A DNA stretch of 64,000 nt from Chondrosia reniformis (Eukaryota; Porifera; Demospongiae; Chondrillida; Chondrillidae), in assembly GCA_947172415.1 (NCBI GenBank), contig OX359189.1, positions 1,510,501 through 1,574,500 of the forward strand. The letters are read 5' to 3'. The stretch's first letter is position 1; each line of letters starts with the position of its first letter. Positions 23,801 through 59,546 of the stretch are shown here, piece by piece. The notes below the pieces were generated by a model. It was not told the DNA's origin. It ran no database searches and saw only the letters and a list, made by a program, of their open reading frames with translations. The position numbers and the translations under genes were made by a program.

Positions 23801-25698
23801 ACTGTATCTAATATATTTTTACATCAAACATCAAATTTTCTTATGAATCAATTTCCTAAACATTTCTTTACAGAACTTTTGAAGCTGGCCAGAACAATTT
23901 ACCTAATAAGGCCTCTGTTGTTGCTACTAGGGAGATCATTAAAGAGGTTACCATGGCAACAGGTGATGACATAATAATAACCCTAGTGTCAGGGGGTGGG
24001 TCAGCTCTTCTAGTAGACCCTGCTGGAGTCACTTTGGAGGAGAAAATTGATGTAACCCAATCTCTTTCTAGAGCAGGAGCCAGCATTCAGGAGCTAAACA
24101 CAGTTAGGTGCCATCTGTCCACTGTGAAAGGCGGAAAGTTGGCACGATTAGCTTCTCCTGCAAAGGTATAGACCTTAAGATTCCTCTCCTTTTATATAAG
24201 AATTGAATTTTGAACACAATTTTGTGTTCTATACACCTTTTACATGTTAATATGTATATATATACGTATACAGAATAGACAGCTGATAATTATATTCATG
24301 AGCATCAGCAACACTTATTAAACAGGTTTGAATGTCTTAGGTCTTCATTGCAACAAGTACCTCTTATCCTTTCACAGAATAGCATATATTTATGCATGCA
24401 TGGTATATTTTAGAGGTTGTTTTTGATAATTTCTGTTTTGATAGCAACAGAAAGTAAATCCTAGACATTTTCCTTAGAAGAGTTTCTGATCCTTTTGGAA
24501 ATTGAAAAATCAAATATGTACTAACCTCAGTATGCATGATACATAGCTGCTACATACCTTAATATGCAAGTATGTAAATATATAGGGAACTATTATATTT
24601 AATGTATGTATATAGAGAGATGAAGTAGTTAAAGAGATACCAAAGAAATAACAATGCATGAGATAGTCAGAAGTTTGGCATTTAGACATACATAGCTCAG
24701 TGGAGAAGAAGAGAAGGAGTAGAAGAAACTCTTGTATCCTCATCCAAAGCTATCACTATAGCTTTAGTTCCCTATAGGCCTTTACTCTAAAGTAGATGTA
24801 ACATGTAAGAAATTGTGTTAAATTAATGTTTGTTATACAGGTCATCAATTTAATATTGTCTGATGTAATAGGGAACCCTCTGCATATCATAGCCAGTGGA
24901 CCCACCATTCATCAGATACCTGCTGACCCTATGCCAATAGTAGATAAATACAGGCTTGAACTGCCAAAGCATGTGGAAGATGTATTGAAGAAATCTTACT
25001 CCTTGACAGAGAACACCATAGAACTGGCGAAGGAAGAGAAAGTCACAAATGTCCTTGTTGGTGACAATACTCTGGCTACAAGAAGCTTGGTTGAGAGCTA
25101 CAGTCGTCTGGGCTACTCCACTTTTGTGTGGTCCCATTCTGTTGATGGAATGGCAAGACACCTCGGAGACTTCTATACCGGGATTGTCAGAAGAAGGCTC
25201 CTGGTCACTTCTGATCATACTCCTATGGCAGCAGATAATGGTCTTACTCTTCCATCTGCTACTGTTTCCAGTCTCGAGATTGGGAGACTAGTAACTTACC
25301 TTTTGGAGGCTCGGCCTCCCTTTTGTGTCATTGGGTCTGGTGAATGTACTGTAGCTGTTCTTGGTCGTGGCAAGGGGGGCAGAAATCAGGAGACCGTTCT
25401 TAGCTTTGCATTGAGTCTTTACAAGGTAGTCCACTTTGAGTTTCCACATCTTTTGAGGTCCAATATGATGCAGTGCACATTTGCCAGTTTTGGTACTGAT
25501 GGGCAGGATGGTCCAACAGATGCGGCTGGTGCACAAGTGATACTCTCTGATCTGATCCACTGGGATGTACAGGAAATGGAGATGGCACTGAATGACAATG
25601 ACTCTTACACTTACTTTGCTAGCAAAGGAAATTGTCTGCTTAAAACTGGACTTTCAGGGACTAATGTATTGGACATTCATGCACTGGTTTTCATTTAA
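20805..25698 (+). CDS. GLYCTK: D-glycerate kinase (GLYCTK family), complete
   Basis: Phosphorylates D-glycerate using ATP, in serine and fructose catabolism; cytosolic or mitochondrial in animals. Exons 20805-20949, 22615-22768, 23874-24165, 24841-25698 join in phase to 482 residues, close to the human length of about 520. Visible family motifs: AFGKAVLGMVEAIEN in exon 2, LVSGGGSALL and LEEKIDVTQSL with GASIQELNTVRCHLSTVKGG in exon 3, then VINLILSDVIGNPLHIIASG, GRGKGGRNQE and FGTDGQDGPTDAAGA in the C-terminal MOFRL region. The start ATG gives MADVNLLAREVLSSI. The exon 1 donor is GTTCGG, a weak site, but it is the only one that yields the expected RVIAFGKAV junction. Introns hold arrays at 21.6, 22.1 and 22.8 kb. 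No clear mitochondrial presequence is seen. Confidence 0.95.
21600..21800. repeat. degenerate TATACCAGTA tandem repeat
   Basis: Imperfect short units such as CAGTATATCACCAGTATATT and CACTAGTATACC in GLYCTK intron 1. Heavily diverged, so boundaries are approximate. Confidence 0.75.
22060..22335. repeat. CACATACTA short tandem repeat
   Basis: Alternating CACATACTAACTGT and CACATACTACCCATC units with an 11- to 14-bp period, in GLYCTK intron 1. Confidence 0.9.
22835..23395. repeat. ~31-bp minisatellite
   Basis: About 18 copies of a unit with core CACCCATTGACACACCCACT followed alternately by GGGAAGA or TAGTAGATA. GLYCTK intron 2. Glycine/valine-rich open frames on the minus strand are repeat artefacts. 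Confidence 0.95.
24293..24375 (-). repeat. SINE-like dispersed repeat, family 2
   Basis: ATGAGCATCAGCAACACTTA then AATGTCTTAGGTCTTCATTG and CAACAAGTACC. The same words flank the copy at 6.4-6.5 kb. In GLYCTK intron 3. Confidence 0.5.
24690..24812 (+). repeat. dispersed repeat, family 1 (copy 5)
   Basis: CAGTGGAGAAGAAGAGAAGG, TCCTCATCCAAAGCTATCAC, TAGTTCCCTATAGGCCTTTA and AAGTAGATGTAACATGTAAG, nearly as at 11.8 kb. It ends 28 bp before the last GLYCTK exon. Confidence 0.75.
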
Positions 25699-30178: not shown

Positions 30179-30399
30179 CCCTTATATATATACATGTATG
30201 AAAGCCTGAGTCTTCTTATATAATTTTATCATATCTGATGAACATGTACATTTGCACCTTTCCAGTATATACACTGGAAAAGAATAAATCTTTACTGACT
30301 TTACAATATTTTAAAGTTATCTTAAAGTTAATGTTTACTAATTTTAAGTCCAACTAAATTTCGTAAACATGTAAGATATATTTAAGACATATAAGTTAC

Positions 30400-30850
30400 T
30401 TAAAGTAAACTTAAAGGTCAAGTTTACGAAATTTAAGAATTCTCTAAAGTTCATAAATATATCATTACTTTTACAAAATTTAAGTATCACATAAATGTAA
30501 CTTAAAGGTCAAGTTTACGAAATTTAAGAATTCTCTAAAGTTCATAAATATATCATTACTTTTACAAAATTTAAGTATCACATAAATGTAACTTAAAGGT
30601 CAAGTTTACGAAATTTAGGAATTCTCTAAAGTTCATAAATATATTATTACTTTTACAAAATTTAAGTATTACATAAATGTAACTTAAAGGTCAAGTTTAC
30701 AAAATTTAAGAATTCTCTAAGTTCATAAATATATTATTACTTTTATAAAATTTAAGTATCACATAAATGTAACTTAAAGGTTAAGTTTACGAAATTTAAG
30801 AATTCTTTAAAGTTCAAAATATATTATTACTTTTAATACAAAATTTAAGT
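30400..30850. repeat. 91-bp subterminal tandem repeat, five copies
   Basis: Units begin AACTTAAAGGTCAAGTTTAC at about 30,409, 30,500, 30,591, 30,683 and 30,774, continuing GAAATTTAAGAATTCTCTAA. They lie directly inside the left transposon end. Short subterminal repeats are typical transposase or accessory-protein binding sites in CACTA elements (known of the family; not shown here). Confidence 0.85.
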
Positions 30851-30861
30851 ATATATATATA

Positions 30862-31046
30862 CAGTAAAGCCTCTAATAAAGGACCATCCAAAGAACAGCT
30901 AACCTCCCTATACAGTGGACACACTACTTGCTTCAAAATAGGACAAAGCTTACGTTTATATCCATAACCTCTAAGAAGGGACAACCTCTCTAAAAGGGAC
31001 TATAATTTTTACTCCCTAATGTGTCCTTTCTTCAGAGGTTTTACTG
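30862..31046. mobile_element. pogo/Tigger-like MITE nested in the CACTA element
   Basis: CAGTAAAGCCTCT at the left and AGAGGTTTTACTG at the right are inverted with one mismatch, each flanked by TA. 185 bp, no coding. Its position inside the subterminal repeats shows it inserted after the host transposon. Confidence 0.75.
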
Positions 31047-31329
31047 TATATTAATATTATATACTTAAACAAAAGTAGACTCCAGATGCAAAGATGTCCG
31101 TATATATATGCTATACTATAAGTATTATTGATATAACTTATAGTTATTAATACACATAACACTTAACACTTATATATGTAACAGTCAAATTTACTAATTA
31201 AAAAATTTGTACATTTTATAAATATATAAGTAAGAATATTCATGCACAAAAAGGTATATATATATGACACAAGTTGGGGAAATATATACATGCATATGTG
31301 AGTGAGTCATATATCATGATCCAACAAAT

Positions 31330-33684
31330 TCAAAAAGTAACAAAATTTTTCTTCGATAAAGGAATGGCTATCTTCTCCAATGAATTTAAGGGTTCAAGAG
31401 TATAGTTAACACCAACGGAAACTAAGTTAGCAATTCGTTGAACAGGTAGAAAGTTTGCTGGACCACCGGTAATGTAATTTCCAAAGGAAAATTCAATAAG
31501 AGGAGGGAGGAAAGATTTGTTGTTTCTAGATGTTGCTTTATACCATTTACAACTGCAAGTGTAATACTGATATATTTTTCTTGATTGTTACATTTGACCA
31601 TGAAAGAATGGTTCAAATAATGCTGGACCTCACCAGGATATAAAATATATGACTCTGTGTTTATAGTGCCATTGTCTTTTGTCCAAGATCCTTGTATGTA
31701 GCCAGAATTACAATTCTTTCCAAAACACTTAGATCCATATCGCTGTGATCCTATATAAATATAAGGATACTTCTTACACAGAGAGGGCAACTGATCAGAA
31801 ATGGCATAGTTAGATCTGGAGAATAGGAGAACGTATACAGATTTTAGATAGGACAAATCGTCCTTATCAAGTGATACTAAAGTGCCTGAATTTGGGGCTC
31901 TTGCAAGTTGCACATCTTGTGTAATAACTTCACACCATACCACTTCTGTTATTGGTTAGTGCTCTGCCATTGAACCATGCTCCATTCATGTTACTCATGG
32001 CCATGGCATACGATTAAAAATATATACATTATAACTCTCAGTTAAAATGAAGTGAAATGATCACACCAATTGCGAGGTGTGAGTATATAGGGGATTACAG
32101 TGACTATAATTAAATTTCCAGTGAGAACGTCTCATGCACTGCATTTTACCAGTTTTATATACATGCATATATACCTCTTCATCTGTTGGAATGGTTCTTG
32201 CACACTTTACTGGTGGCTTGCAATTGTAATCTGAATCATAGGCTGGTTCGATCTCTACATTTGCACCATCTGAATGGACTAATTGATCAATTCCAGTAGG
32301 TGGATAAGGTTGATCACTTAAGTTTGACTCTGCTGTCAGAGGCCTCTTCTGAAGTATATAGAAAATTACATACAAAATGAACAACATGCATGAAGACATT
32401 GTGGATAAACGATAAACTAATATGTAATTATACGAAAACATGTGGAACAAGCTAAGTCCTAATTAAAAATGGTGGCGAAGAGTTCGTACTTTCTAATGTG
32501 CTCTAAGTAACCATCTTTGCACAGATCATTTTGAAACAGAATGTGCCTATTCCCTAGTTCCTAAAACCGGAACTGTTAAACGTTTAGTGTGAATGTTACA
32601 CCCGATTTGTTTGTATTAATCATGCAATAAAAGTTAACTTATACAATCAAATTGAGGTTATCCTTTTTCTTTACATCTGTGTGCATGTATGGCTCCAGGG
32701 ACACAATTAAATTATCTTTGAGATGATACATCCTTCGACATTTTGAGAGTTTCTAAATATTCAAAAAGTCGAAGGATGTACCATCCCAAAGATAAGCGGA
32801 GTTAGGAGGGATCCTTATTCTATTACACAATTAAATCGTTCAGTAAAGATGATTTCCCCTTAGTTGTAAACGCCTGAAAATGTTTTAGCAACTTAGAGCT
32901 ACTTTGCGCTACTGAAAACACCTTTCTCTCGATTGAAATCGTGCGAAAAGGAAGTGTATTGCTATATATTAACATGTCAACTCGTAATACATCGAATAGG
33001 GCTTTTTCGTACTGAGAGAGTACTCGCCTCTAGTAAGTACGAACAGATTTAAGGATGATACATCCTTCGACTTTTTGAGCGTTTCTAAGTACTCAAAAAG
33101 TCGAAGGATGTACCATCCCAAAGATAAGCGGAGTTAGGAGGGAATCCTTATTCTATTACACAATTAAATCGTTCAGTAAAGATGATTTCCCCTTAGTTGT
33201 AAACGCCTGAAACTGTTTTAGCAACTTAGAGCTACTTTGCGCTACTGAAAACACCTTTCTCTCGATTGAAATCGTACGAAAAGGAAGTTCATTGCTATAT
33301 ATTAACCCGTCAACTCGTAATACATCGAATAGGACTTTTTCGGTCATCCCTTACTGAGATAGTACTCGCCTCTATGGTACATACGCCCAGATTTCGGGAT
33401 GTAAACTTTGAGAATATTTGCATACGGAAAAAACTTGGGGTAAGATGTCTAGTTATATTAAAGTACGAGTGTCTGACCTTAAGCCACTGAGCTTCGTCCT
33501 CATCAGAACTGGAAATTTCTGCTTCAAAAGGATTGCGTTGAAATATTTCACCATCTCTACCTCGAGCTCCTTGTTCTGGCTTTTGTTTAATTTTACGCAT
33601 ATGCCTGTACATCGTAGCTCTGGCCACTAGTTGTCCATGACATTCGTTACAAAAACACATCTTTCTGCTTTGTTCATAAACCAT
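31330..33684 (-). pseudogene. transposase-like gene remnant lacking its catalytic core
   Basis: Exon 1 (33684-33478) starts MVYEQSRKMCFCNECHGQLV followed by RATMYRHMRK, a CxCxxC..H metal-binding motif like the N-terminus of animal tnp2/EnSpm-type transposases, then an acidic stretch. Exon 2 (32348-32175) joins in phase and ends IPTDEE. A C-terminal block (31940-31330) has PYIYIGSQRYGSKCFGKN and YPGEVQHYLNHSF in one frame and FGNYITGGPANFLPVQRIAN in another; a frameshift near 31,565 separates them, and the block does not join exon 2 in phase. The roughly 400-residue catalytic region expected between exon 2 and this block is absent. The family call rests on layout and recalled motifs, so another element-encoded protein is possible. 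Confidence 0.5.
32723..33396. repeat. 331-bp tandem duplication with internal hairpin
   Basis: Two copies, about 32,723-33,053 and 33,054-33,396, share TACATCCTTCGAC, AGATAAGCGGAGTTAGGAGG, ATCGTTCAGTAAAGATGATT and later text with few changes. Near the start of each, ACATCCTTCGAC..TTTTTGA pairs with TCAAAAAGTCGAAGGATGT as a hairpin. It lies in the first intron of the transposase remnant. A drifted fragment is at 12.54 kb. Confidence 0.9.
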
Positions 33685-33872
33685 AATAGACTATATATAC
33701 GATTAACACTGTGACAAACACGAAGGAGCACCTATAGCTAGGAGCACATGTTAAAGTCTTGCACGTGCATATATGCATATATGCATAAATGAATAAATAC
33801 ATAAATGAATAATTGATTTGCGCGGGTTAGTTCAAGCGGGATAATTTCAAAAGGTCGACCTACAATTTTTCA
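33685..33872. promoter_or_regulatory. divergent promoter inside the transposon
   Basis: 188 bp between the start codons of the transposase remnant (minus) and the acidic gene (plus). Contains TATATGCATATATGCATAAA and ATAAATGAATAA runs that could serve as TATA-like elements. Inferred from arrangement. Confidence 0.4.
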
Positions 33873-36010
33873 ATGGCAAGTCCAAGCGAAACTATTGAGC
33901 CTTGCGAAAATGAAGAAGCGTCATCCCCACTGGGCCATGAGGAAGACCAAACAAATTTACCTTGTGAAGAAGTTACCTTCACAACAATTAATGACCTGTC
34001 AGACGATTCTTATGACAGTGATTCTGATGAAGAATTCCGATATTCTAATTGTGACATAAGTAGCGATGTGTCCGACAGTGAAGACGCCGAGGAACTAGCA
34101 GAGCTGCAAAAAGAAATACTAATCCTAGAAGGGGAATCGTTTCTTACTGAAACTGGTACAGTAGAAACAGCAGCACTTGTAGGTTCCATTGTAAACCTAA
34201 AGCAAATGCTAGAAAGTTTCCTAGAAAACTGTTCGCAGTTTATGGAAAGAATGGCGGCGTCACAAGCGGAAGGACAACGAGAGCTAAAGAAAGCAATTAG
34301 AGAATTAAAGCAACCGGGTAATACGGAACCAGCTACAAACCTAACCGGACGCACTCGAGGAAAGGCGAAAGTACCAATTGAATGCTCGGTAAGCACAAGT
34401 TATAGTTGCCGCTAGAGTATTGATTGCAAACATTCATTATAGAAAACGTCGTCGAACTTGTTGTGAAATATATAGTTAAATGGCGGCTTCAAGGCAGGAT
34501 ATTCTTTTAAGCGCTTTTAGTGGATATTGCTATTTTCCTGCTCACACGTCGACATTTTTGAGTTTAAATACTCGTATTAAGGCGATTTATTAATATAATA
34601 CAGTCTTTAGTAGTTTCCATAGTCGATTTTAGGTTAGAAAATCGTTAACGTTTTAGGATGCCATTTTTCTTATATACACTGTACATCTTGTACACTAAAA
34701 TATAAATTTACGCAACCTCAACTTGGCAATGCAAAATTGTAGTTTGCAACTTTGAATGTAAACCTCTAGATGACTCTAGGAAATCATTCATGCTAACTCC
34801 CTATACACTGAAAATTTGATACATCCTGTATGGTAACTTGTGCATGTCAGTGATTCAATTTAAGCCGCACGAAATAATGTATAAATTGCATATAGAGGAG
34901 AGATATAAAATTGTTCAAATTAAAAGGTATTGCAAATTAAGAAAATTCGAATTATGTGTGCTGCACTGTAGTATAAGCTTAATTGTGGGGGCAGCCAAAT
35001 ATTTGTACATGTATTAAGCATATATATTATGAAAGTATAGTACTTTAATTTTGATCAATACTTCAGGTAGACTCTATAGTGATTATGCATGTTCATGGCC
35101 ATCATGTACATTAATGTCCTCTTATAATAGAGTGCTGTTAGACAAGTATACACAGCTTTGTTGAAGAATTCGAAGTCCCAGCAAAATGATTTTTCTGAAT
35201 GGAACTTTGATCAAAGGTGCATAGACTTAACACATGTAGTGGTCATGCATGAAGCATATCATTATCATGAATTTTCATACAGGTTTGATTCTAAAGAAAA
35301 TGAAGAAGTAAATGCAAGATTAATACGGGAAATTGTACAATTATACCCAAGTGCAAATCAAAAATGGGGAGAAGGGATCATAAAAGGTATATGTTAATGT
35401 ATTATATATATTAGGCATATTATACCAATTTTCTTGTATATAATATGTGCAGCTGCTGCCCAAAGATACTTCCAAACAAGATTGGAAGTTTTCAAGAAAT
35501 CGGATGCTGAAATAGAGGTGCATAAGCGTATCTCTAGGAGAAATGGCAGAATCCTTCAGGTAAATCAATAATGCAAGTATATACTTAATCAATGCAGCTT
35601 ATATCCATGTACGTGTATATATGTAGAAAATGAATAACAGACTGAAGGCATTGGAAACCATTGAATGGACTGAAGATGCCAAGGAGAAGGCGAGGAAATG
35701 TATTGCAGAAAAGGGGTACCACAGTTCAGAACATTCTGAACTTGAGTCCAGTAGTGGAAGTGATGATGAAGATAGTGATGATGATGAGGTGCAACAACCT
35801 AAAGCCAAAAGGATCAAAAGATCTAGAATCGTCATTCAAACGTTACCTTGGCAAAGAACAAGATTAAAAATTACTAAAGAAGAATTAGACCGCCACCATG
35901 AAGACACCCTCAGTGAAAGGGCACGTGGTATGACTCAAAAAAGAGAGAGGGGAGGTCCATCTAACAGAAGTGTGCCAAAGACACGAATTGACTGGGCTTG
36001 CAAAGCCTAG
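33873..36010 (+). CDS. acidic coiled protein carried by the transposon, function unknown
   Basis: Exons 33873-34388, 35167-35386, 35453-35559, 35627-36010 give about 408 residues; exons 2-4 join in clear phase, while the exon 2 start (acceptor TTGAAG at 35166) is the weakest point and an extra exon may exist. The N-terminal third is very acidic (SDDSYDSDSDEEF, SDVSDSEDAEEL) and ends in a probable coiled coil (RELKKAIRELKQ). The middle has FSYRFDSKENEEVNARLIRE and QRYFQTRLEVFKK. The C-terminal exon has a second acidic-serine tract, a basic PKAKRIKRSR nuclear-localisation-like run, and LPWQRTRLKITKEELD. I do not recognise a named family with confidence; a resemblance to animal C14orf93-like proteins is only an impression. 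The reading frame appears intact while the neighbouring transposase is broken. It could be an accessory DNA-binding protein of the element or a host gene captured by it. Confidence 0.6.
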
Positions 36011-36606
36011 GACTCCATGGATGTGCAGCCTCTCTGCATGTATAACTTTTCCTAAACAAAGTACAATACTAGACTAAGTACTGTGTAACATTAATTAGCA
36101 GTGCATGCATGTAGTTGATTTAAAACTCTATATATGTATATCTGTGTATATACATTTTAAGAATGTTATTTGTCTTTATTGGATCATGATCAGATATTGT
36201 TTCATATACGTGTGCATGCTAAATTCATATACACATGCATTCATGCATGTATATGCATGAGATTTTTAATACATGCATTTTAAGTCATAATTAGTTTAAC
36301 TTTAAGACACCTTTAATCATGGAACTTTAAGGAATTTAAGATATCATTAAGTCCAGTTTATATTGTTGATAGGTTTATTGACTTTACAACACATTTAAGT
36401 TAACTTCAGGTTTTCAAATTTTAGGATTGATTTAAGTTGTCTTTAAAGAAATACTTAAAGTGAATCATTACTAAATTTAAAAGGCACCCTAAATGTAGAG
36501 TAAATATGATATTTAAGATGGGACCCTAAATTTAGTAAATTTGAATTTAAGTTATATTTAGGTCATGTTTAAGTGACCCATATATTTGATATATTTTGCA
36601 GTGATA

Positions 36607-39541: not shown

Positions 39542-41272
39542 TCAAAATGGCAAATAAGCCCGCATTATTCTCTCAACCCTACTCCTACATATGGGACAGA
39601 GAGTTACCGAATGAGCACACTTTTTGCAGCAACAGACATGTCCACATGGCAAGAACATGGACTCAATATCGTGGTCCATACATATACGACAGGATTTCAT
39701 TTCACTCTCCCTTTGAGTCTCAGAAGATGTTCCACTGTACTTAGCAGTACTGAAGTACTGGGAGGCACCGTAGCTTGTTGCAGTTGATTCGGGAGCAATT
39801 GGCCTACTCTCCCAGCTAGGAGAGCTGTATTGATCAGATTTCCTCTGAGGGGGGTACAGGATCGACTCATCTTCTTCTTTAAAGCTTTTCCCAGGCTTTT
39901 CAAATGTATTAAAGCATGTTCCTCCACTGTCATATGAACTTCCTTCTAACTTCTTTGTTGTTGAAGAATAACTATTAAAGCCACTGTATGCTTTGACTGG
40001 CTTGCTGTATTGATCTTCATCATCAAAAGAAGACTTAGATTTTGTAGCATTGAATGAGTATTGATCAACAGATTTACCCGTATACGGTGTATATGCTGTC
40101 ATGTGCTCTTCTCGTGACATCAGAGGTTTTGGTTTGGAAATAGAGAGACCACTAAAGGTAGGCACAATACTTGAAGAATCACCTTTATATTTTGCCTCCA
40201 AATAACCTGCAGTTGGCAACTCGGCTTCCTTCCGTAGCAACTTTTGTGTAGCAATTTCTTGGTCTACAATGACTACAAACATACACTTTGGAGACAGTTT
40301 GCGATGTTCCTCCATCGGATCATCAAATGGCTCCCAGTCTCTTAAGATCATGTCACAAGAAAAGCATTGAGTATAATCAGGCATTTGGACAAGAATAAAT
40401 CCAGCATCTGCCAATTTCTCTTTTGTAATAGGTCTGGTTGGGTCATATATATAATAAGTTATCAATCTGCGATCATACGTAGAGTAATCAGAAATACCAC
40501 TACCCTCTGGATCAAATCTTTCGGCAGATCTGTTTTTCGAAACTCTTGCTTCATACAGTTTGGAATAATACGGAGTAACTTGCTTCACATCTCTCTGTTG
40601 TGGAAATTGTGAAGTAGTAGGCATTCTATAACCACCTTCATTTGATCTTGGTACCCTACTCCTCCTGCCATGTCGATAATCTGCCTGCATTCCTTGACGG
40701 AACTGACAGTGAGGTTGATGAAGGTGTGCAATGTACTCACCTGGTGTTGGGTTCTCTACTGAAGCATTACAGTCTCGACAAACAATTTTACTTTCTTGAC
40801 CAGTGTAAGCAAAACCAGCATTAGCCAGAATATCTGGAGTTAGACCTGGAGTATTCAAGTAAGGCCATTTGGGGTCTCTGTAGTAGGAATTAATATTCCC
40901 TTCAATTGGCTTTCCTTTTCCGTCTCGTCCTGCGTTCGTGTGGTCCGTGAAATTAGTTACAAGGTTTAAGGATTCTTTTCTAGAATACGTTTTCTGGGGC
41001 ACCAAGAAAGAGCGTCCAGGCACTGGAAGACATTTTTGGTCGTTTGATGCTTCAAGGGGCTCAGTTGTGGTTAAATAAGAACTGGTTGGTTCACCAATTG
41101 TTTTACTTACTGGTCTCTGCTGGTGATTCAAAAATGTAGATTCATCTGAAACGGAATCTATTCTTTTACAAATCTCTTTGATGGCCAGCGTACACTCGTG
41201 ATGAACGTCTTTTAGTCCATCTTTAGTTGAATCTTCAGTAAGATCTTCCGTATTACTAGTAATCAGTGACAT
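39542..41272 (-). CDS. IAP-family protein, two BIR domains and a C-terminal RING
   Basis: Single-exon frame of 576 residues. Likely a cytosolic E3 ubiquitin ligase of the inhibitor-of-apoptosis family. The first BIR is about 134-191, with zinc ligands in CRDC (165, 168), H185 and C189, but lacks the usual tryptophan after the second cysteine. The second is about 270-331, with CFSC (303, 306), RDWEPFDDPMEEH and C330, and is canonical. A serine/tyrosine-rich low-complexity linker covers about 340-525. The RING is 528-570: CRICMDHDIESMFLPCGHVC then CKKCAHS and CPICRSRVERI, matching the XIAP/cIAP-type C-terminal RING. No CARD or UBA seen. Lack of introns in an otherwise intron-rich region could mean origin by retroposition, although a 5' non-coding exon is not excluded. 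Caspase binding is family knowledge, not shown here. Confidence 0.93.
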   Translation of the reverse strand: MSLITSNTEDLTEDSTKDGLKDVHHECTLAIKEICKRIDSVSDESTFLNHQQRPVSKTIGEPTSSYLTTTEPLEASNDQKCLPVPGRSFLVPQKTYSRKESLNLVTNFTDHTNAGRDGKGKPIEGNINSYYRDPKWPYLNTPGLTPDILANAGFAYTGQESKIVCRDCNASVENPTPGEYIAHLHQPHCQFRQGMQADYRHGRRSRVPRSNEGGYRMPTTSQFPQQRDVKQVTPYYSKLYEARVSKNRSAERFDPEGSGISDYSTYDRRLITYYIYDPTRPITKEKLADAGFILVQMPDYTQCFSCDMILRDWEPFDDPMEEHRKLSPKCMFVVIVDQEIATQKLLRKEAELPTAGYLEAKYKGDSSSIVPTFSGLSISKPKPLMSREEHMTAYTPYTGKSVDQYSFNATKSKSSFDDEDQYSKPVKAYSGFNSYSSTTKKLEGSSYDSGGTCFNTFEKPGKSFKEEDESILYPPQRKSDQYSSPSWESRPIAPESTATSYGASQYFSTAKYSGTSSETQRESEMKSCRICMDHDIESMFLPCGHVCCCKKCAHSVTLCPICRSRVERIMRAYLPF

Positions 41273-41782
41273 TATTCACTGCCAGCGATTCAGCTCCTAC
41301 AAATTTACATTAGAATTCTTAGAAGTTCAAACATGGAAATTCATAGGTTACCACACGAATAAATTATTCATGGTGCAAAGGTGATGCAATCAGATCTATT
41401 GGTTGCATAACCAACAGCCCGAGAGGGCCAATAGTGCTCAATTAACACATAACAGTTCTTTACGTGGTCAAACACCTGCCAAACCTACCAATCGAATGTA
41501 TAAGAATGATAAGATAAGTACTATTGATTGATTGATTGATGTGCAGAGGCCAAAAGTCCAGTCAGTGCATTGGCTCTTTAATGTGTATGGTGTTAGTGCG
41601 TAATATTTTGGCTTACTATAGATCGTGTTTTTGCTCTAATATCCGAGATTGAACTAGCCAGGATACCAATGTACACAATCTGAATGAACTGGCGCTCCGC
41701 GTTTCGTTGTCATAGTAACACTACTATGCAAATGGCGGATTTAGCGGACTTGGAGTATAATTGAACATTTTTTTCAAAGATC
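41273..41782. promoter_or_regulatory. divergent intergenic region between IAP and PPIL6
   Basis: 510 bp between divergent start codons. Contains four TTGA/GATTGATTGATT units at about 41,524 and no coding exon I can support. It should hold both promoters. Confidence 0.4.
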
Positions 41783-50044: not shown

Positions 50045-52311
50045 CTATTTAGCTTCAATTCTTCTGAGGCAAGAATTGTGAAAGGATCCTTTCCATTCTA
50101 AAGAGGGAATTGAATTGTACAATTGTGGCAGTCTACAGATACTGTATAGGTGATCTTTGTAATTTTCATGTTTGCTTGAATCATTTTGTAAATCATGGTG
50201 TGATAGGAATTTCTCCACAATGGTTTGTTGGAATACACCACCTCCCACAACAATTAACTTTTTAGAGTGGCCAAGCACTTCGTGTTCAATGAAACTAGCT
50301 GATGTTCTAGTGATGTTATACTTCTTGGGGTTAATATATGCAGGAGTAAGACTAGTTATTTTCTTCAGGGCTGCAACTACTGTATTCAACTTTTGGGGGC
50401 ACTTGTGTAAGCAGGAGTCAGTACCACTTGGAGAGACGTCAGTGAACAGCAGTACTTTAATGTCTTCTTGAGTAGCTATAAGTACCTCCTTCTTAACTGA
50501 ATTGATAGTATTGAGACAGCATTCAACTTCTTTATTGGACAGCCTAATTAACTCTTCAATTCTTACCTATATAAAATGGAAGCCCCAGCTGATACAATTA
50601 CCCTTATTAGGCTATGATATCCAAACACTTCTGTCTATCCAATTAATGCAATTTGCTATATATTGTTATGCTTGCATTCAAAACATCATTCAAACATAAT
50701 GTATCAGTTGCATGAATACGTAATAGGCTAACTCCCTCACAGCCCGCCCACTATTTACTTCTCAAATTAAAAGTGTACCTGTTTGACATATATATAGAAA
50801 CTAGAGGAAATGGGTTTCTCATTTATATGACTAATTAAAATTACAATGAAAATGTCATATTAATTATATAGAAAATGTGATCATGATATGTAATACAGTT
50901 ATAATATAATGAAAATTTATAATGTCAAATCTATGTAAAATAGTATTATTACGAGTCTCAGCAACATAATTTTTCTAATTGAACGTCTCAACCCAAAACT
51001 CTTGTTAACGTGATCACAACAAAAACCAACCCGTACCGTATATATTTAATACATGCATGTGAACATGTAAAATGTACTCATTACTTGGGCCTATATGCAT
51101 ACATTACAATCATGGCCATTCCATTCAACAGCTACTTAAATAATAGTGTAGTAATATCAAATTCAATCTATGAGACATTTATATGACAGTGGCATGTTTG
51201 CATGCTATATAGTGTGCCTCATAGGACAGTCTGTCCTAGTGCTATGCATGTGGCACGTTAAATAAAATAATAATAATAATAAATATAGTTAAGTGTTGTA
51301 TGAGCTCACATGTATTCCGATGTAATTCCCTTGCACACCGAGATCTGCTGTGAACTGGCTGGCTGATGGTGTTGTGTTGTCAAGCAGCGTAGGCCCCCTC
51401 CTCAGATAATCTGCACACTCCTTCTGCTCAGGATTCAGTGAAAGTAACTTGGGCCTGCCATCAGGATTGTATAACCCAGATTTTATGTAACTGTACAGCA
51501 GTATACTGAATTGATAATTTTCTTTCTGCGACACCAAGGAATTCATAGCTGTCATTAGAGTATTAGATATAGTTGGAGTTGAAGTATGCCAGCAGAGCAC
51601 ACTTTGGATAGAAAAAGGTTTAAACTCATGACCACCATTATTGAGATAATTTTCTAACTCAGTTGCTGTAGAGTTAAATGTTGCCGTGCAGTCCCAAATC
51701 GGTTCAACCTGATCACTCCTTACAATTTTCAAAGTCATTACTAAAATAATTTGTCTATAGCTCAATTTCATGAAAGTTGACCATTTTTCCACATCGCATC
51801 CATTATGACACAGGGCTGCCTGCTTCAGTTGCTCCATACTAAAAACAGTACCATATGGTAACATTTTCTCCTCGGATAAGCAAAGACTATCTTTGTAGCC
51901 TGGAATCCCATAGAGCCTCGATCCACACACGAAAGGTTCAACTAAGGTGCTCTGCCAGTCTAATGCTATCCGACAAAGATCCACGTAACTGAATAGTTGT
52001 CGGGTCAGCTGTTCGATGGAAAGCACTGTAATCAGAAAGGAGCGAGATGCGGAACGTAATTCTTCGTAAGATGTAGCCTTTGATTCTGGCGGTCTAGCCT
52101 GCCTCTTAAAGACGAGCAAATAGGCAGTGGAGGAGTTTGCTCTCGGATTAGCGTCAAACAGTGCTACATGCCATAAGTAAAGGACGAGGACAACGATTAT
52201 CGTTACCAAAGGAAACAGTCGAGACATCGAGGCTCTCCTACGAGCCAAATGAAGCTTCAGTTTCACTGTCATGTATATACCTTGACAAATAATACCACTC
52301 GAATCCTCCAC
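50045..52311 (-). CDS. type II membrane, fucosyltransferase-like protein, paralogue A
   Basis: Two exons, 52311-51310 and 50566-50045, about 507 residues; a later in-frame Met (MTVKLKLHL) could be the true start. One N-terminal hydrophobic helix (LFPLVTIIVVLVLYLWHVAL) suggests a Golgi/ER type II membrane protein. Shared family motifs: CRIALDWQSTLVEPFVCGSR, LYGIPGYKD, HNGCDVEKW, and in exon 2 LLFTDVSPSGTDSC and KLIVVGGGVFQ. The exon junction creates IGIH/VRIEE, an HxR motif like the GDP-fucose-site HxR of fucosyltransferases (family knowledge). Several NxT/NxS sites and conserved cysteines fit a lumenal domain. Catalysis is inference. Divergent from paralogue B, 242 bp between start codons. 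Confidence 0.75.
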
Positions 52312-52553
52312 AATTTTTAAATCAGTATTTGTTTTTATCCGGTGAAAAGTCTATGCATACACTTTATAATTATACAAGTCCATTGCAGCCAGGGAAACCA
52401 TAATACTCTTAATTTAATAAAATTATAATGTAACAATAATTACATCAAAGGTGATATATATATATTACATGCGAAGATCATATTAGTCTACTTAGCTTGC
52501 GGGATATATATGCGTCACGCACGGGAATATTAAATGATTGATGTTTAGAGGAG
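52312..52553. promoter_or_regulatory. divergent promoter between paralogues A and B
   Basis: 242 bp between opposed start codons, AT-rich with GATATATATATATTACATG at 52,452 and a GC-richer GCGTCACGCACGG at 52,512. Inferred from arrangement. Confidence 0.4.
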
Positions 52554-54777
52554 ATGAGGCTTTCTAGACAGCTCCATTATTTGGCATCAGTCCTTGCTCT
52601 TGCTATTCTGTTCCTCCTGGGAAAACGAGTGCAAGTGATGCAGAACAACGCAAGAAGCCACGGCCATGTAGTTGTTAAAATACTAGGTCGGACTTGGCTG
52701 TCTGCGTTCTCCGGTAGATTGTCTCCACAATTTATCGTCCCCATTTTCTCTGAAGAACAGCTGATTAACCAGTTAGGGAATTTTATGGATCTGTGTCGCT
52801 TAGCGCTGGACTGGGATGGCTCTCTTGTAGAACCTTTTGTGTGTGGATCCAGACTCTACGGATTGCCTAATTTTAGAGACGATCACTGTAGTCGAGAATT
52901 GATTATGGCACCTTATAACTCATTTTATGATTTACAGGAGTTAAATGATTCGCTGCACTGTGCAAATGGATGCAGCATAAGGCCCTGGTCAGATTTTGTC
53001 AAGAAGTCTTATCGCAAACTCTATATCATTCTAATGCTTAAAGGATATACATATATCAGCTTATTGAAGAAAAGGCAGAGTATAGGGGATATGAATTTAA
53101 AACTGTTAATGGACTGTACAAAGGAATTCAGTTCCTTTGCCCAAAATGTCACACTAGCACTTAATGCTGAAGCTAATAAATTCTCTGTCCCCCTTTTTAG
53201 AGTCATTGGAATCGTTTGTTGGGACCGAACAGCCACCATAAGTACAAGACAGCTGATGTTACACATGAATTCTGGCCTATCACATGAAGACCAAAATAAG
53301 TTTAGCGTCTTATTTGACAGATATGCATCAAGACAAGATAGTGGAAATATATACCGACCTCAAATTGTGTCATCAAAACAAGTGTTAAAGACAGACTTCT
53401 GCAGTAAGCTGGCAATAGGACCTACTCTTGTGAAGCATTACAAAGAGTTGGCAAAGTCATTTGTTGAAAGTCTGGGAATGAAGTTTGGCAGCTATATTTC
53501 TGTACATGTAAGTAAAGACATGAGACATTTAGTTTAATTATACCTTTGTATAGTACAAGGGGCATGTTGCTGGAATGGATGTAGAAATTTGTTAGATTTT
53601 AGCTCCTAGCTTTTTATCTTTAAAATGACATTTTGTTAAATGCATGCAGACAATGTCATGCAAAATCACCAAGATCAAAAACTGATCATGAATATAGCTG
53701 ATCTATGCATTGAGTTTAAATCTGTATTAACCACATGCACACATAACGTTAATGTTTGGCCAAACCATACACCCTATATCCTCACTGCCACACTCTGCTA
53801 TATAACATATACCCTTACAATTTTCTATAGATCTGCCCATATTGTATTATGAAAATCAACTGAATGCAGCTTGTTGTGTGTATAGATTTGTTATATTCCA
53901 CTAAATAAAAACAATATGCAAGCATTTTCAATATGTACGTGATGCTAGCATTGGATTTATAAAGCTATATAGGTTAAAGAAACCGTATATGTATTAGAGT
54001 CAATCCTCGAGGGCCAGGTTTAACCTATATAATATGCATATGCATGAAATTAAAAGGATTCTGAAGTATATATATATAATATATTTTGAGAATTAAACCA
54101 AATCTCAAGATGGGATTGAAGCAAGATCCCCATATATCATTATGCATGCATGCAGCTACACTTGTGCATGTTGTTCCTATGCAATCAGTGATGAAGGAAA
54201 CATGCACTTTATTTTTATATACACATCTTATGACACTTTACAGATACGGATTGAAAAGATGGTTAAGAATTTCTCAGATTGGAAAATAAAATGCTGCATG
54301 GAAAACTTGAAGAAGTCCCTTCTGCAGTTAAAAGGTGACACAAAAATACTGCTAATAACGGACATATCACCCTCTGGAACAGACTCCTGTGATCAAGATA
54401 ACACTAATTGTATAAGGAAATCAAAACAAATAAAAGATTCGTTGAAAACTGTTGTTGGGGTGAATGCTGAATACTTTGACCCAACAAAGTATGGACATGA
54501 CATGTTAGGGAATTCAATTGCTGGTGCAGTGGAGAGTGAGGCACTATGCCGAGGCAATAAACTGCTTGTGGCAGGAAGTGGTGCTTTTCAGGCTAAAATT
54601 ATACACAGATTCTTTGAATACAAGTATGCTTTAACTGGCCCACCATTAACACCAAAATTTGGAAATTATACTGAAGGGGGTGAGATTGAACCAGATGTTT
54701 ACACATTTTGTAGAACTCCTTTACAGGACCTGGACACATTTTATATGGACAGAATATTAGCAGACAACTCCTGTTAA
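52554..54777 (+). CDS. type II membrane, fucosyltransferase-like protein, paralogue B
   Basis: Exons 52554-53507 and 54244-54777, 495 residues. N-terminal helix (ASVLALAILFLLG). Motifs as in the paralogues: CRLALDWDGSLVEPFVCGSR, LYGLPNFRD, ANGCSIRPW, then LLITDISPSGTDSC and KLLVAGSGAFQ. The exon junction gives ISVH/IRIEK. It has an insertion near TYISLLKKRQSIG and a longer C-terminal tail than A, C and D. It is well diverged from C and D, so it is an old duplicate. The 736-bp intron is the longest in the family. Confidence 0.75.
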
Positions 54778-55407
54778 TGATATATATATGATAATGATAT
54801 ATAATGTGATGCTTGGAATCTAATCCAAAGTACGTATACATGCATGGCTAACTTTAGCTTAAATAATGTATTATCAGGGCAAAGGGGTTAGCCTCGAGCT
54901 TTAGGCTTAGCCCAGTCCCCACTCATGAGACTTTTCAACAAATTCAGTAGTAGTAGTAGTGTAGTGGTAGTAAAGTTTTTGCCACCCAGTTCCATGACCA
55001 TGAAAGATGGACCCCCACTTTTAGGAGCTGCTACCGTCCCTGATTGTATGCTTGATTGCGAGTTAATTTAAATAAAGTTTTAATTCTCAGCCAAATTAAC
55101 AATCTTAACCTTTGCTATACCAAGGCCTATTAGCCTATTAGGATCCAAAGGGCCTGTGGTATAGCTAATAATTAGGGACTAGACAATTGGCCTTGGTGAC
55201 ATATCTTTATAGCTACGGTTAAAAAAGAAAGTTTCTCCACTCTGAAAACCACCTCAAAATCAGGATCGATGCTAATTGATGAGTAAAGTTCTCCCTCCTT
55301 TACGTGCATGTAATATATAATTGTTCGCTTTGGGAGAAAAACGGCGACTGATTTGCATTGAATTTGTTACCGCCATTTTAAACTGATAACAGCCTCGCGT
55401 TGAAGAC
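54778..55407. other. intergenic spacer between paralogues B and C
   Basis: 630 bp; a short AGTAGTAGTAGTG run at 54,947 and otherwise unremarkable sequence. It must contain the promoter of C. Confidence 0.5.
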
Positions 55408-57148
55408 ATGATTTGTGTTCGGAGACCACTGCTAAGTAGTAAGGTGCTGTTAACTCTTATTGTCGCCATCGGAGCTGGTAATTTGATATTTTTTAAAAGT
55501 AGTTTGTTGGATGTAAAAAGTGGTCTTTCTACTATACATTCGAATATCTTAGAAGGAAGATCGGTAAAGGAAATCGAAGGAAATTATTTAGCAGATATTA
55601 ATGTCACGAGGAAAACCTATTTACTTACAGTGTTCTCCGATGAACAAATTAGTAATCAAATGGAAAGTTTCGTTGACAGCTGTCGAATAGCTCTTGATTG
55701 GGAGAGTTTTATGGTCGAACCATTTGTCTGCGGTTCCAGGCTGTACGGTGTGAAGGGATACAAAGATAAGCACTGCGAGGAAAACGAACAAATGCTCAAG
55801 TACAGCAGCATTTATGGCAATGACTTAGATAATGGAATATCCTGTAATGGATGTTTACTGAAAAGTTGGAAAAACTTCCTACAGGAGTCACATCGTGATA
55901 TTTATATGATATTTCGTGCCAGCAGAGGGATGGACTTTGATGAATGTAATGCATGGCAAGCCCATACTCTAAAGGACCTATCGTACCACTTAAACAAAGA
56001 GGCCAAGTTGCTATCAGTTCCACCCTTTAATGTGAAGGGTGCTGTGTGTTGGTCTGCGGATACGGGAACCTCAACGTCAGAGCTGATGAAGAGTATGAAG
56101 GGAGAAGCTGGTAATCAGAGCAAGTTCAGTGTATTCTTCTATAGATACATGGCAAGGAATGACCACCAGGGATGGCGGCCATATTTGTCATCAAAGCATG
56201 TAAGTGATTGGTGGCACTGTATGAGGAACAGGGCTATCTCTTCACCTCAAATATTGGACCTGGCTGATAAGTTCAGGAAAAGCCTACATTTGGTAAAAGA
56301 TCACTACATAGCAATACATGTAAGCCATGCACTGAATAGGTAGAGATGATGATTTTCCATATACAGTTGCATATATTTGAAAAGGTTCATATTTCCATTT
56401 TTGAGTATTTAAATGGTTTAGAGAGTCAAAAGTTGAAAAACTAGACATCTATGGGATATTTTCATGTATATAATAATTATACACACATTTACGCATGCAT
56501 TTTATAGCCATGTCACTTTACAGCAAATTTATATTAGTTATGTTTGTATAAATGGCATCATGCATGGTATAACTTTGCAGGCCACACAGGATTGTTAATT
56601 TTTTTACTTTCTCTTCTCCCATTCAGTTGAGGTTGGAAAAGCTTATTGTAAAGCAATCATTGAACTATATGAAGTGCTGCATGAAATACGTTCAATCAGC
56701 ATTTATGAATGTTACAAAGGAATTGAACCAATCTTCTGATCAACACACTTCCCCATTTCCGGTTTTAGTGATTACAGACATGTCTCCTTATGGGACTGAC
56801 TCCTGTAGCTCTACCAATGGGTGTCTACAAAAGGCCCAATATGGATTAAATTTGCTCCGAAACATAACGGGTATAGAGCCATCATTCTTTGACCCAAAGC
56901 AGTTCAATGCAAGCAGGGCAGAAGCAGGCTTGGTAGAACAGGAAGTCCTAGGCTGGGGGAGGAAGTTGATTGCAGTCGGCGGTGGTAGATTTCAATCCAA
57001 TGTTTTAAGGATATTCCGTCAAAAACTAAACAAAAAACTACCTGGTGTGGTTTTGTACTCAGTTTGTGCAGGGGAGACTGCCCTTGTAAAGACTTTCAGA
57101 CCAAAGGGAGTATTAATATCACGTGACTCATGTTTGCAATATTTATAA
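55408..57148 (+). CDS. type II membrane, fucosyltransferase-like protein, paralogue C
   Basis: Exons 55408-56319 and 56627-57148, 477 residues. N-terminal hydrophobic segment (VLLTLIVAIGAGNLIFF) then lumenal domain: LLTVFSDEQISNQMESFVDS, CRIALDWESFMVEPFVCGSR, LYGVKGYKD, SCNGCLLKSW; exon 2 has VLVITDMSPYGTDSC and KLIAVGGGRFQ. Exon junction IAIH/LRLEK carries the HxR motif. Long blocks are almost identical to paralogue D at DNA level while the first about 65 codons and the last about 55 codons differ. The frame is intact, so this is the functional-looking member of the C/D pair. Confidence 0.78.
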
Positions 57149-57384
57149 GATGTATTTGTTACTTTGATTTGATTTTTAACTGCATGAATATCTAAAACAC
57201 CACAATGCACTTATAAAATGTATAGCTTGGTGCGTGGATCTTCCGGCCAATCGAATTTTCCAAATAAACAAAAAATGAAGATGTTGTAATAATGAAAATG
57301 GCCGTCCATTGTATTTATATCGATTAAAGATTATGACGTGACAATCACCGGCTAGGACCGGACGAACTACCAAACAATAGAATC

Positions 57385-59546
57385 ATGCAAATTAGAAAAG
57401 GACCCGGACCCAGTTATAAAGTGATATTCTTAATATTCGTTGCTGGAGGTGCTGGTGTACTCTATTTTGGCTATTTATTCTTCGTATCTAATAATACATT
57501 TATCTCTTATGATCAAGTAAAGTTGTACGTTTCTCTTCATAACAGAAACGCTCCGCTAAATGCAGTATTCATGAAGGAAGCGATACCTATAATAGCACAG
57601 AATCGAACCAATATCACGAGGAAAACCTATTTACTTACAGTGTTCTCCGATGAACAAATTAGTAATCAAATGGAAAGTTTCGTTGACAGCTGTCGAATAG
57701 CTCTTGATTGGGAGAGTTTTATGGTCGAACCATTTGTCTGCGGTTCAAGGCTGTACGGAGTGAAGGGATACAAAGATAAATACTGCGAGGAAAATGAACA
57801 AATGCTCAAGTACAGCAGCATTTATGGCAATAGCGTAATCAAGACCATGTCCTGTAATGGATGTTTATTGAAAAGTTGGGAAAACTTCCTACAGGAGTCA
57901 CATCGTGATATTTATATGATATTTCGTGCCAGCAGAGGGATGGACTTTGATGAATGTAATGCATGGCAAGCCCACACTCTAAAGGACCTATATATCGTAC
58001 CACTTAAACAAAGAGGCCAAGTTGCTATCAGTTCCACCCTTTAATGTGAAGGGTGCTGTGTGTTGGTCTGTGGATACGGGAACCTCAACGTCAGAGCTGA
58101 TGAAGAGTATGAAGAGAGAAGCTGGTAATCAGTGCAAGTTCAGTGTATTCTTCTATAGATACATGGCAAGGAATGACCACCAGGGATGGCGGCCATATTT
58201 GTCATCAGAACACACTAGCAACAAACATCAGTGTGGGAAAAATAACATGTTACCTCAAATAGTCAAGTTGGCTGATGAGTTCAAGAAAAGCCTGCACTTG
58301 ATGGAAGGCCATTACATATCTGTACATGTGAGAAGATTTCTTTATGCATGGCAAATGATATATTATATAACTAGCATATAAGCCCTCCTTCGGCGGGCTT
58401 CTCCGCTACAATAAAACCTAGATTATATAGACTACGTAAGGTTACGTAGTCTATATAATCTATGGATAAAACGATAAAAAATGGTGTCTTTCCTTTACAT
58501 AAATTTGAGACTGGATGCTCTTCGCAGCGGCGAATTTTCTTACATGAAATACTTCAGGTCACTTCCCAAGTGATACTCCATATAATCCGTGAGAGTTAGA
58601 CTGCATTTCGTCCAGAAACGACGGAGTAATGCGGTAACAAACAAACCCACAAACTCTACTGAATTATATATATAGATACAATAGATGTATCTATATATGG
58701 AAATTCTTTTGAAATGCTTCTGGAATTAATTGAGTGTAATTGAATCTGAAGAAGGCAATCAAATTGGAATACATTTACAATTTAACACCATGGTTTCTAA
58801 TTACCCAAAAGTAGGCTTGTTCAAAGTCATCTACGTAAATATAGAGATATAATATATATAGCTATCTATTGTATATGCTAAATTTACTATATGTGACTCA
58901 CTGGAAGACATTATGGCATGGGATATATTTTAGCGATGTTTCATCATATAAAAGAAGACTGTATATACATTTTTCTTCCTTATTATTATGAATACATGTT
59001 TGTTATTCTATTATACATTAGGTAAGGTTGGAGAAACTTGTAAAAAATCTGAAATCACTGGACACTATGAAGTGTTGTATAAAATATATTCAATTTGCAA
59101 TTACGAATGCTACAAAGGAATTGAACCAATCTTCTGATCAACACACTTCCCCATTTCCGGTTTTAGTGATTACAGACATGTCTCCTTATGGGACTGACTC
59201 CTGTAGCTCTACCAATGGGTGTCTACAAAAGGCCCAATATGGATTAAATTTGCTCCGAAACATAACGGGTATAGAGCCATCATTCTTTGACCCAAAGCAG
59301 TTCAATGCAAGCAGGGCAGAAGCAGGCTTGGTAGAACAGGAAATCCTAGGCTGGGGGAGGAAGTTGATTGCAGTCGGCGGTGGTATTTACCAGAGCAAAA
59401 TTTTGAATAAGTTTCATTACAAATTAAACATGAGCATAGCTGGTGTGGATTTGTATTCAGTTTGTGCAGGAGAAACTGCTCTTGTGAGGTCCTTTAAGCC
59501 AAAATTAATGATTATATCCCATGAATCATGTAAAAGTTTATCATAA
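57385..59546 (+). pseudogene. paralogue D of the fucosyltransferase-like family, frame broken
   Basis: Exon 1 57385-58327 and exon 2 59022-59546 follow the family layout: hydrophobic helix (VIFLIFVAGGAGVLYFGYLF), CRIALDWESFMVEPFVCGSR, exon 2 MSPYGTDSCS and KLIAVGGGIYQ, junction ISVH/VRLEK. Compared with C, four extra bases (TATA) at about 57,991-57,994 shift the frame after TLKDLY and lead to a stop near 58,044; the original frame resumes at 58,022. All else looks sound, including splice sites and exon 2. It could be a recent pseudogene, a segregating null allele, or an assembly or sequencing error in a TA run. The 694-bp intron is more than twice that of C and carries inverted repeats. Confidence 0.7.
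58371..58700. repeat. cluster of hairpins, candidate small mobile element in paralogue D intron
   Basis: Three inverted repeats: AGCCCTCCTTCGGCGGGCT (58381-58399); TAGATTATATAGACTACGTA with its exact complement across a GG spacer (about 58,419-58,462); and ATATATAGATACA/TGTATCTATATAT (about 58,669-58,699). Read on the minus strand the first hairpin is followed by ATATGCTAG at 58,371, resembling a Helitron 3' end (hairpin then CTRR, then T). The 5' end was not found. Paralogue C lacks this segment. Confidence 0.35.

What the first reader, a model, noticed from the sequence alone, without database searches (positions are those of the whole stretch)
30272..36603. A CACTA/CMC-type element with matched ends and target duplication
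CACTGGAAAA and CACTGCAAAA inverted termini, an ATA duplication on both flanks, and subterminal AACTTAAA-type repeats at both ends frame exactly two divergent genes. That set was found independently of the coding content and fits the CACTA pattern of two genes between subterminal repeat arrays. Possibly an undescribed animal family.
Basis: partly seen in the sequence, partly recalled or inferred. Interest (0 to 1): 0.82.

Follow-up and report, generated by a model that had tools for sequence, protein, structure and literature searches.

The report
Sponge CACTA transposon missing its transposase core
This stretch is a real jumping gene of the CACTA type best known from plants, in what is very probably a sponge genome; this copy has lost the cutting part of its enzyme, sister copies still carry it, and its second gene appears to be a partner shared with other CACTA families of the same genome.

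Summary
All six have CACTGGAAAA...TTTTGCAGTG ends and a perfect 3-bp target duplication (ATA x4, CTT, TAC). Paralogous empty sites with one triplet were found for three of six. The window copy is an internal-deletion derivative: at least 2,269 bp present in all five sisters are missing at 31957/31958, and with them the Transposase_21 (tnp2) core, open as a 915/916-aa frame in four of five sisters. The window keeps two leading exons and the tail of the transposase gene plus an intact, divergent, five-exon second gene (398 aa). ACTTAAA repeats are enriched at both ends and absent inside. New lead: relatives of the second gene lie beside tnp2 in four of five other CACTA families examined (two of the three not picked for gene-2 hits), divergent in three and same-strand in one. 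Best reading: a non-autonomous CACTA copy, mobile only in trans, with gene 2 as a TNPA-like end-binding partner (inferred). Animal CACTA elements are known, so this is a new member of a known kind.

The parts
30269..30271 (.). left target-site duplication ATA
   Evidence: 6 of 6 copies have matching 3-bp flanks
30272..30281 (+). left terminal inverted repeat CACTGGAAAA
   Evidence: same 10 bases in the other 5 copies, which match from base 1
30272..30850 (.). left subterminal region with ACTTAAA-type repeats, including a 91-bp tandem array 30408-30852
30858..31050 (.). nested ~190-bp interspersed repeat, MITE-like; 14 other genomic matches listed (a lower bound)
31330..31957 (-). gene 1, remnant of exon 3: about the last 210 residues of the tnp2 transposase, frameshifted near 31540
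31957..31958 (.). junction of the internal deletion (2,269 bp missing relative to three sisters; no microhomology against the C2 copy)
32175..32348 (-). gene 1 exon 2 (58 codons), borders by eye
32722..33342 (.). 333-bp tandem duplication, each unit opening with a hairpin, in gene 1 intron 1
33478..33684 (-). gene 1 exon 1 (69 aa, zinc-finger-like by eye)
   Evidence: related exon in families B and C
33685..33872 (.). 188-bp gap between the two start codons, presumed shared promoter
   Evidence: promoter role inferred
33873..34388 (+). gene 2 exon 1
35131..35216 (+). gene 2 exon 2
35283..35386 (+). gene 2 exon 3
35453..35559 (+). gene 2 exon 4
35627..36010 (+). gene 2 exon 5 with stop; whole gene 398 aa, GT-AG introns, predicted without transcript data
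36264..36603 (.). right subterminal region with ACTTAAA-type repeats
36594..36603 (-). right terminal inverted repeat (TTTTGCAGTG on +)
36604..36606 (.). right target-site duplication ATA

Best explanation
An internally deleted, non-autonomous copy of a recently mobile, low-copy CACTA (En/Spm-type) cut-and-paste transposon family. Shown: family, ends, 3-bp duplications, precise insertion of three sisters, loss of the tnp2 core from this copy, its presence in the sisters, an open second gene. Inferred: tnp2 protein from sister copies could act in trans on this copy's intact ends; gene 2, kept beside tnp2 in several diverged families, makes the partner protein that binds the ACTTAAA subterminal repeats and helps pair the ends, as TNPA does in plant Spm; the two genes share the 188-bp head-to-head promoter. 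The confidence given is for the identification as a CACTA deletion derivative; I put the end-binding role of gene 2 at about 0.6.
For: Six copies: right 340 bp at 97-100% over the full length in 6 of 6; left end from base 1 at 96-100% in 6 of 6, three of them only over the first 307-494 of 579 bp; 3-bp duplications in 6 of 6. Long copies are 8.9-10.0 kb and 98.0-99.8% alike; the window copy is 97.7-99.3% like them. All 5 long copies hold 2,269-2,759 bp where the window has a bare junction. Transposase_21 in the C13 copy's ORF: E 2.9e-13, 49.9 bits, cut-off 28.6; the 5 long copies, and not the window element, are among the 55 Transposase_21 places of the genome. Empty sites with a single triplet for 3 of 6 copies, best alignments 117, 117 and 114 of 117. 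Gene 2 open in the window, C2 and C14 copies, 6 synonymous and 4 replacement codons window-C2. Families B (6,227 bp, ATA) and C (6,295 bp, CTA) have like ends and gene order. Gene 2 relatives in D and F by profile comparison, above all shuffles. TNPA binding of subterminal repeats and trans-mobilised deletion derivatives in plants: PMC2613891, passages.
Against: No expression, excision or binding data. Gene 2 has no Pfam match above cut-off and no solved relative, so its role rests on position, conservation and analogy. The deleted form was found once only, so nothing shows that it moved after losing the core. No empty site was seen for the window copy; its left flank is single-copy. Gene 2 was not assembled from C13 and the two C12 copies, and in C13 its first exon is split over two frames. 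No gene 2 was found in family E.
Confidence: 0.93

Rival explanations
1. A host gene pair with chance CACTG words and chance ATA flanks.
For: CACTGGAAAA alone is common: 596 occurrences on both strands of the genome against 366 for the control.
Against: Six dispersed copies share both ends and have 3-bp duplications in different flanks; three empty sites.
Confidence: 0.01
2. The window copy is itself an autonomous CACTA element.
For: Both ends, both subterminal arrays, gene 2 and the first exons of gene 1 are present.
Against: The Transposase_21 core is deleted and the remaining tail is frameshifted.
Confidence: 0.02
3. A member of a related superfamily (Chapaev, Transib, Mirage) rather than CACTA.
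For: CACTG ends also occur in Chapaev (recalled).
Against: 3-bp duplications in 6 of 6 copies (4, 5 and 2 bp in Chapaev, Transib and Mirage: recalled) and Transposase_21 above the curated cut-off. No tree was made.
Confidence: 0.03
4. Gene 2 is not a transposition partner but a captured host gene or a regulator (for example a repressor) carried along.
For: No similarity to a described family; gene 2 pieces occur at C2:6585191 and C5:2561664 without tnp2 in the 10 kb read around each.
Against: Relatives lie beside tnp2 in 5 of 6 families looked at, this one included, over tnp2 identities down to about 36%.
Confidence: 0.3

Closest known systems
Plant En/Spm and Tam1 (CACTA)
   Same: CACT ends, 3-bp duplication, subterminal repeat arrays, tnp2 transposase plus a second protein, internally deleted copies (PMC2613891 and PMC8978399, passages)
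   Different: CACTG not CACTA; two separate head-to-head genes, where Spm makes its proteins by alternative splicing of one unit (PMC1636069, passages); no Pfam plant-transposase match in gene 2
SmTRC1 and animal TRC elements
   Same: Transposase_21 in an animal; a second, non-transposase product (PMC1636069, passages)
   Different: TRC elements have CCC ends and 2-bp duplications, and alternatively spliced products; their second protein was reported without relatives in other TRC elements, whereas gene 2 here has relatives in other families of the genome
Families B, C, D, F of the same genome (C13:6003937-6010163; C14:2740868-2747162; C8 near 6895067; C7 near 554144)
   Same: tnp2 plus a related second gene; B and C also like ends (CACTGGAAAA..., ...TTTGCAGTG, 3-bp duplication)
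   Different: tnp2 identity 57-58% (B), 47-69% by piece (C), about 36% (D) and 38% (F); C is frameshifted; in D gene 2 lies downstream on the same strand; ends of D and F not defined

Membership tests
CACTA (En/Spm) superfamily | Terminal inverted repeats beginning CACT(A/G) | tested here: met
   CACTGGAAAA / CACTGCAAAA in 6 of 6 copies. That CACTG is allowed beside CACTA is recalled
CACTA (En/Spm) superfamily | 3-bp target-site duplication | tested here: met
   6 of 6 copies: ATA x4, CTT, TAC
CACTA (En/Spm) superfamily | tnp2 / Transposase_21 transposase | tested here: met
   Met by the family, 5 of 6 copies. Not met by the window copy alone, whose core is deleted
CACTA (En/Spm) superfamily | Subterminal repeat arrays at both ends | tested here: met
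   ACTTAAA counts above all 300 shuffles at both ends
CACTA (En/Spm) superfamily | Precise insertion shown by empty sites | tested here: met
   3 of 6 copies; none seen for the window, C13 and C12:5035552 copies
CACTA (En/Spm) superfamily | Second element-encoded protein binding the subterminal repeats | tested here: inconclusive
   A second gene exists and has relatives; binding not testable. PF03004 gave nothing in this genome nor in the 14 controls, so it says nothing
CACTA (En/Spm) superfamily | DDE/D catalytic residues in an RNase H fold | tested here: inconclusive
Animal TRC group (SmTRC1) | CCC ends with 2-bp duplication | tested here: not met
   CACTG ends, 3-bp duplication against the paper's description

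The most novel reading that the evidence does not exclude
Animal CACTA elements have their own old second gene, a TNPA analogue without visible likeness to the plant ones, kept together with an ACTTAAA end motif and moved between head-to-head and same-strand placement; the window copy, which keeps gene 2 but not the catalytic core, is a natural end-binding-only derivative that could repress or help its sisters.
Probability: 0.45. Interest if true: 0.55.

Novelty: new member of a known kind. Interest (0 to 1): 0.42.

Why it matters
CACTA transposons were worked out in plants as two-protein machines: a cutter and a protein that grips repeat arrays near the ends. For animals the second protein has been unclear; the SmTRC1 paper reported no relatives of its candidate in other animal elements (PMC1636069, passages). 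Here a recently mobile family and diverged relatives in one (very probably sponge) genome keep a related second gene, and those with both ends defined have the same kind of end motif. Whether animals use the same two-protein logic thus becomes testable with a small, defined system.

Tried and rejected
Chance host genes: rejected by copies and empty sites. Autonomous window copy: rejected by the deletion. Solo ends or short derivatives: none seen; the left- and right-end searches gave the same six close copies and beyond them only matches of 67-78% identity, some of the left-end ones being inverted matches inside the same copies. Empty site for the window copy: none in the listed part of the 390 matches (40 of 798 first-look candidates were scored, the listing was cut), and its left 100 bp is single-copy. 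PF03004 as a test of plant kinship: says nothing, as no control rang. Solved relatives of either protein: none convincing (best E 0.82 and 0.21). Rfam: no match in the window. Family E (L060) has tnp2 (886 aa) but no gene 2 relative was found. Ends of D and E: not found with the rule used. Literature: the listings of searches and passages of PMC4298943 held no sponge CACTA description; the library is partial and Repbase is not held.

Full report
Source. The genome searched has 117,379,552 bp in 15 contigs and the window is C1:1510501-1574500. Contig lengths seen agree with the chromosome table of Chondrosia reniformis odChoReni1.1 (10.41, 10.29, 9.42, 8.8 Mb and so on; contig 4 is 8.95 against 8.96, and the total 117.38 against 117.37 Mb; PMC12181767, passages). 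The species name is an inference from sizes.

The element. Window 30272-36603 begins CACTGGAAAA and ends TTTTGCAGTG, with ATA on both sides. A search with the whole element found five further places that carry both ends: C2:8235252-8244194 (8,943 bp, ATA), C12:5121493-5131477 (9,985 bp, CTT), C13:1630037-1639075 (9,039 bp, TAC), C14:93296-102461 (9,166 bp, ATA) and C12:5035552-5044713 (9,162 bp, ATA). All six have a perfect 3-bp duplication. Separate searches found the right 340 bp in these six at 97-100% over the full length and the left end from base 1 at 96-100%, in three of them only over the first 307, 488 and 494 of 579 bp; everything else was 67-78% alike. The window copy is 97.7-99.3% identical to the others and the long copies 98.0-99.8% to one another, so the family moved recently.

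Empty sites. The two flanks of each copy, joined at one target triplet, were searched in the genome (390 matches, listing cut; 40 of 798 candidates scored). Uninterrupted matches across the junction were listed for three of six copies and aligned over 117 bp: the C12:5121493 copy (117 of 117 at C9:6579784, 116 of 117 at C11:4011674 and C1:4912171; single CTT; the site reads like a helix-turn-helix transposase gene, a motif recalled and not tested), the C14 copy (117 of 117 in a neighbouring satellite unit, C14:92516) and the C2 copy (114 of 117 at C8:4546582). None was listed for the window, C13 and C12:5035552 copies; the window's left flank is single-copy.

What is missing. Every long copy holds extra DNA between the bases that correspond to window 31957 and 31958: 2,269 bp in C2, C12:5121493 and C13, 2,276 in C12:5035552 and 2,759 in C14, which has a further 490-bp insert. 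Compared with C2 the junction shows no microhomology. With that DNA the long copies have a leftward frame, stop to stop, of 915 aa (C2, C12:5121493, C13) or 916 aa (C12:5035552); in C14 it is split. The C13 frame matches Pfam Transposase_21 at E 2.9e-13, 49.9 bits against a cut-off of 28.6. A Transposase_21 search of the genome lists 55 places, 54 above cut-off; the five long copies are among them and the window element is not. The window keeps exon 1 (33478-33684), exon 2 (32175-32348) and the last part of exon 3, itself frameshifted. It is a deletion derivative, seen once.

Gene 2. On the other strand, its start codon 188 bp from that of gene 1, lies a predicted five-exon gene of 398 aa with GT-AG introns, open in the window, C2 and C14 copies; in C13 and the two C12 copies some splice marks were not found and it was not assembled, and in C13 the first exon is split over two frames. 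Window and C2 differ by 6 synonymous and 4 replacement codons: few, but in keeping with selection on the protein. It has no Pfam match above cut-off and no solved relative.

Relatives. Family B, C13:6003937-6010163 (6,227 bp, ends CACTGGAAAATAATG and TTTGCAGTG, ATA), has an open 900-aa tnp2 frame (57-58% identical), the leading exon and a divergent gene 2 with the same five-exon layout, 41% identical. Another copy shows at C13:6896310 (tnp2) and C13:6898633-6899967 (gene 2). Family C, C14:2740868-2747162 (6,295 bp, CTA), has the same parts but is frameshifted. Family D (L061, C8) has an 890-aa tnp2 frame about 36% identical, and a gene 2 downstream on the same strand with like exon borders plus one more intron, read by eye; profile comparison with A and B scores 56.3 (probability 93.6) against a maximum of 23.7 in 200 shuffles, while a plain HMM search gave only E 0.0035. 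Family F (L062, C7; tnp2 about 38%) has a divergent gene 2, cut by the end of the stretch and spliced by eye: 32.7 (probability 33) against A and B, 100 shuffles max 18.8, and 46.1 (probability 87.5) with D added, max 20.0; its unspliced exons gave no HMM hit. Family E (L060) gave no gene 2. So gene 2 or a relative lies beside tnp2 in 5 of 6 families, this one included. The choice was not random: B and C came up through gene 2 or end matches, D, E and F for tnp2 matches with long frames; of these last three, two have it.

End motif. ACTTAAA counts exceed every shuffle at both ends of A and of C; in B the right end does (6, max 3), while the left only equals the highest shuffle (2, max 2). The interiors show no excess (A 0; B 1 against a mean of 1.45; C 2 against 1.70).

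Working model. Sister copies would make tnp2, which cuts at the CACTG ends; insertion leaves 3-bp duplications (the duplications are shown, the enzyme's action is inferred). Gene 2 protein would bind the subterminal repeats and bring the ends together (inferred from Spm; PMC2613891, passages). The window copy, with both ends and gene 2 but no core, would be mobile only in trans and could supply gene 2 protein (inferred).

Comparison. At family level it meets the CACTA features that could be tested, with CACTG in place of CACTA. It is not a TRC element (CCC ends, 2-bp duplication; PMC1636069, passages). CACTA elements in animals are thus known. I did not meet a second gene conserved between animal CACTA families in the listings of searches or in the passages read; the library is partial, so this is a lead and not a claim of priority.

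What changed on checking. The confidence in the rival that gene 2 is not a partner was raised from 0.2 to 0.3 for the last reasons; the other odds stand.

Noticed in passing
window 30858-31050: A nested ~190-bp repeat with TACAGTAAAGCCTCT-like inverted ends in the left part of the element; 14 other genomic places of 73-88% identity are listed. It looks like a pogo-type MITE (recalled).
   Followed up: partly
window 32722-33342: 333-bp tandem duplication inside gene 1 intron 1, each unit opening with a 27-35-bp hairpin; sister copies differ in length here, and hairpin-like matches also occur at C5:1916495 and C8:4185228.
   Followed up: partly
G000:C2:6585191-6586005 (L051): A piece 90% identical to the gene 2 first exon and following intron, with no other part of the element matched beside it and no tnp2 in the 10 kb read.
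   Followed up: partly
G000:C5:2561664-2562202 (L029, L052): Another diverged gene 2 fragment (82% DNA identity over 284 bp), no tnp2 in the 10 kb read; the nearest Transposase_21 place listed on C5 is about 14 kb away at 2576305.
   Followed up: partly
G000:C6:3281456-3283439 and C4:3109696-3109997: Further places 73-76% like parts of the left end: probably other relatives; around C4 only a 29-residue tnp2 match was found.
   Followed up: partly
G000, 55 places: The genome holds 55 Transposase_21 places, several in open frames of 800-922 aa: many CACTA families.
   Followed up: partly
G000:C14:92516-92715 and arrays on C13, C11, C7: A satellite with units about 169 bp apart on several chromosomes; one element copy is inserted in it.
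   Followed up: no
window 39542-41275: 577-aa leftward ORF with two BIR stretches and a RING finger, inhibitor-of-apoptosis-like.
   Followed up: partly
window 24802-25698: ORF with MOFRL and DUF4147 domains; glycerate kinase-like (enzyme name recalled).
   Followed up: no
window 50045-59546: Array of related ORFs on both strands (...EPFVCGSRLYG... and ...TDxSPxGTDSC...); the three pieces scanned have no Pfam match at E 0.001.
   Followed up: no
window 1-64000: Many minisatellite arrays: 26 rows at score 150 or more, units 14-333 bp, up to 32 copies; no baseline was made.
   Followed up: no
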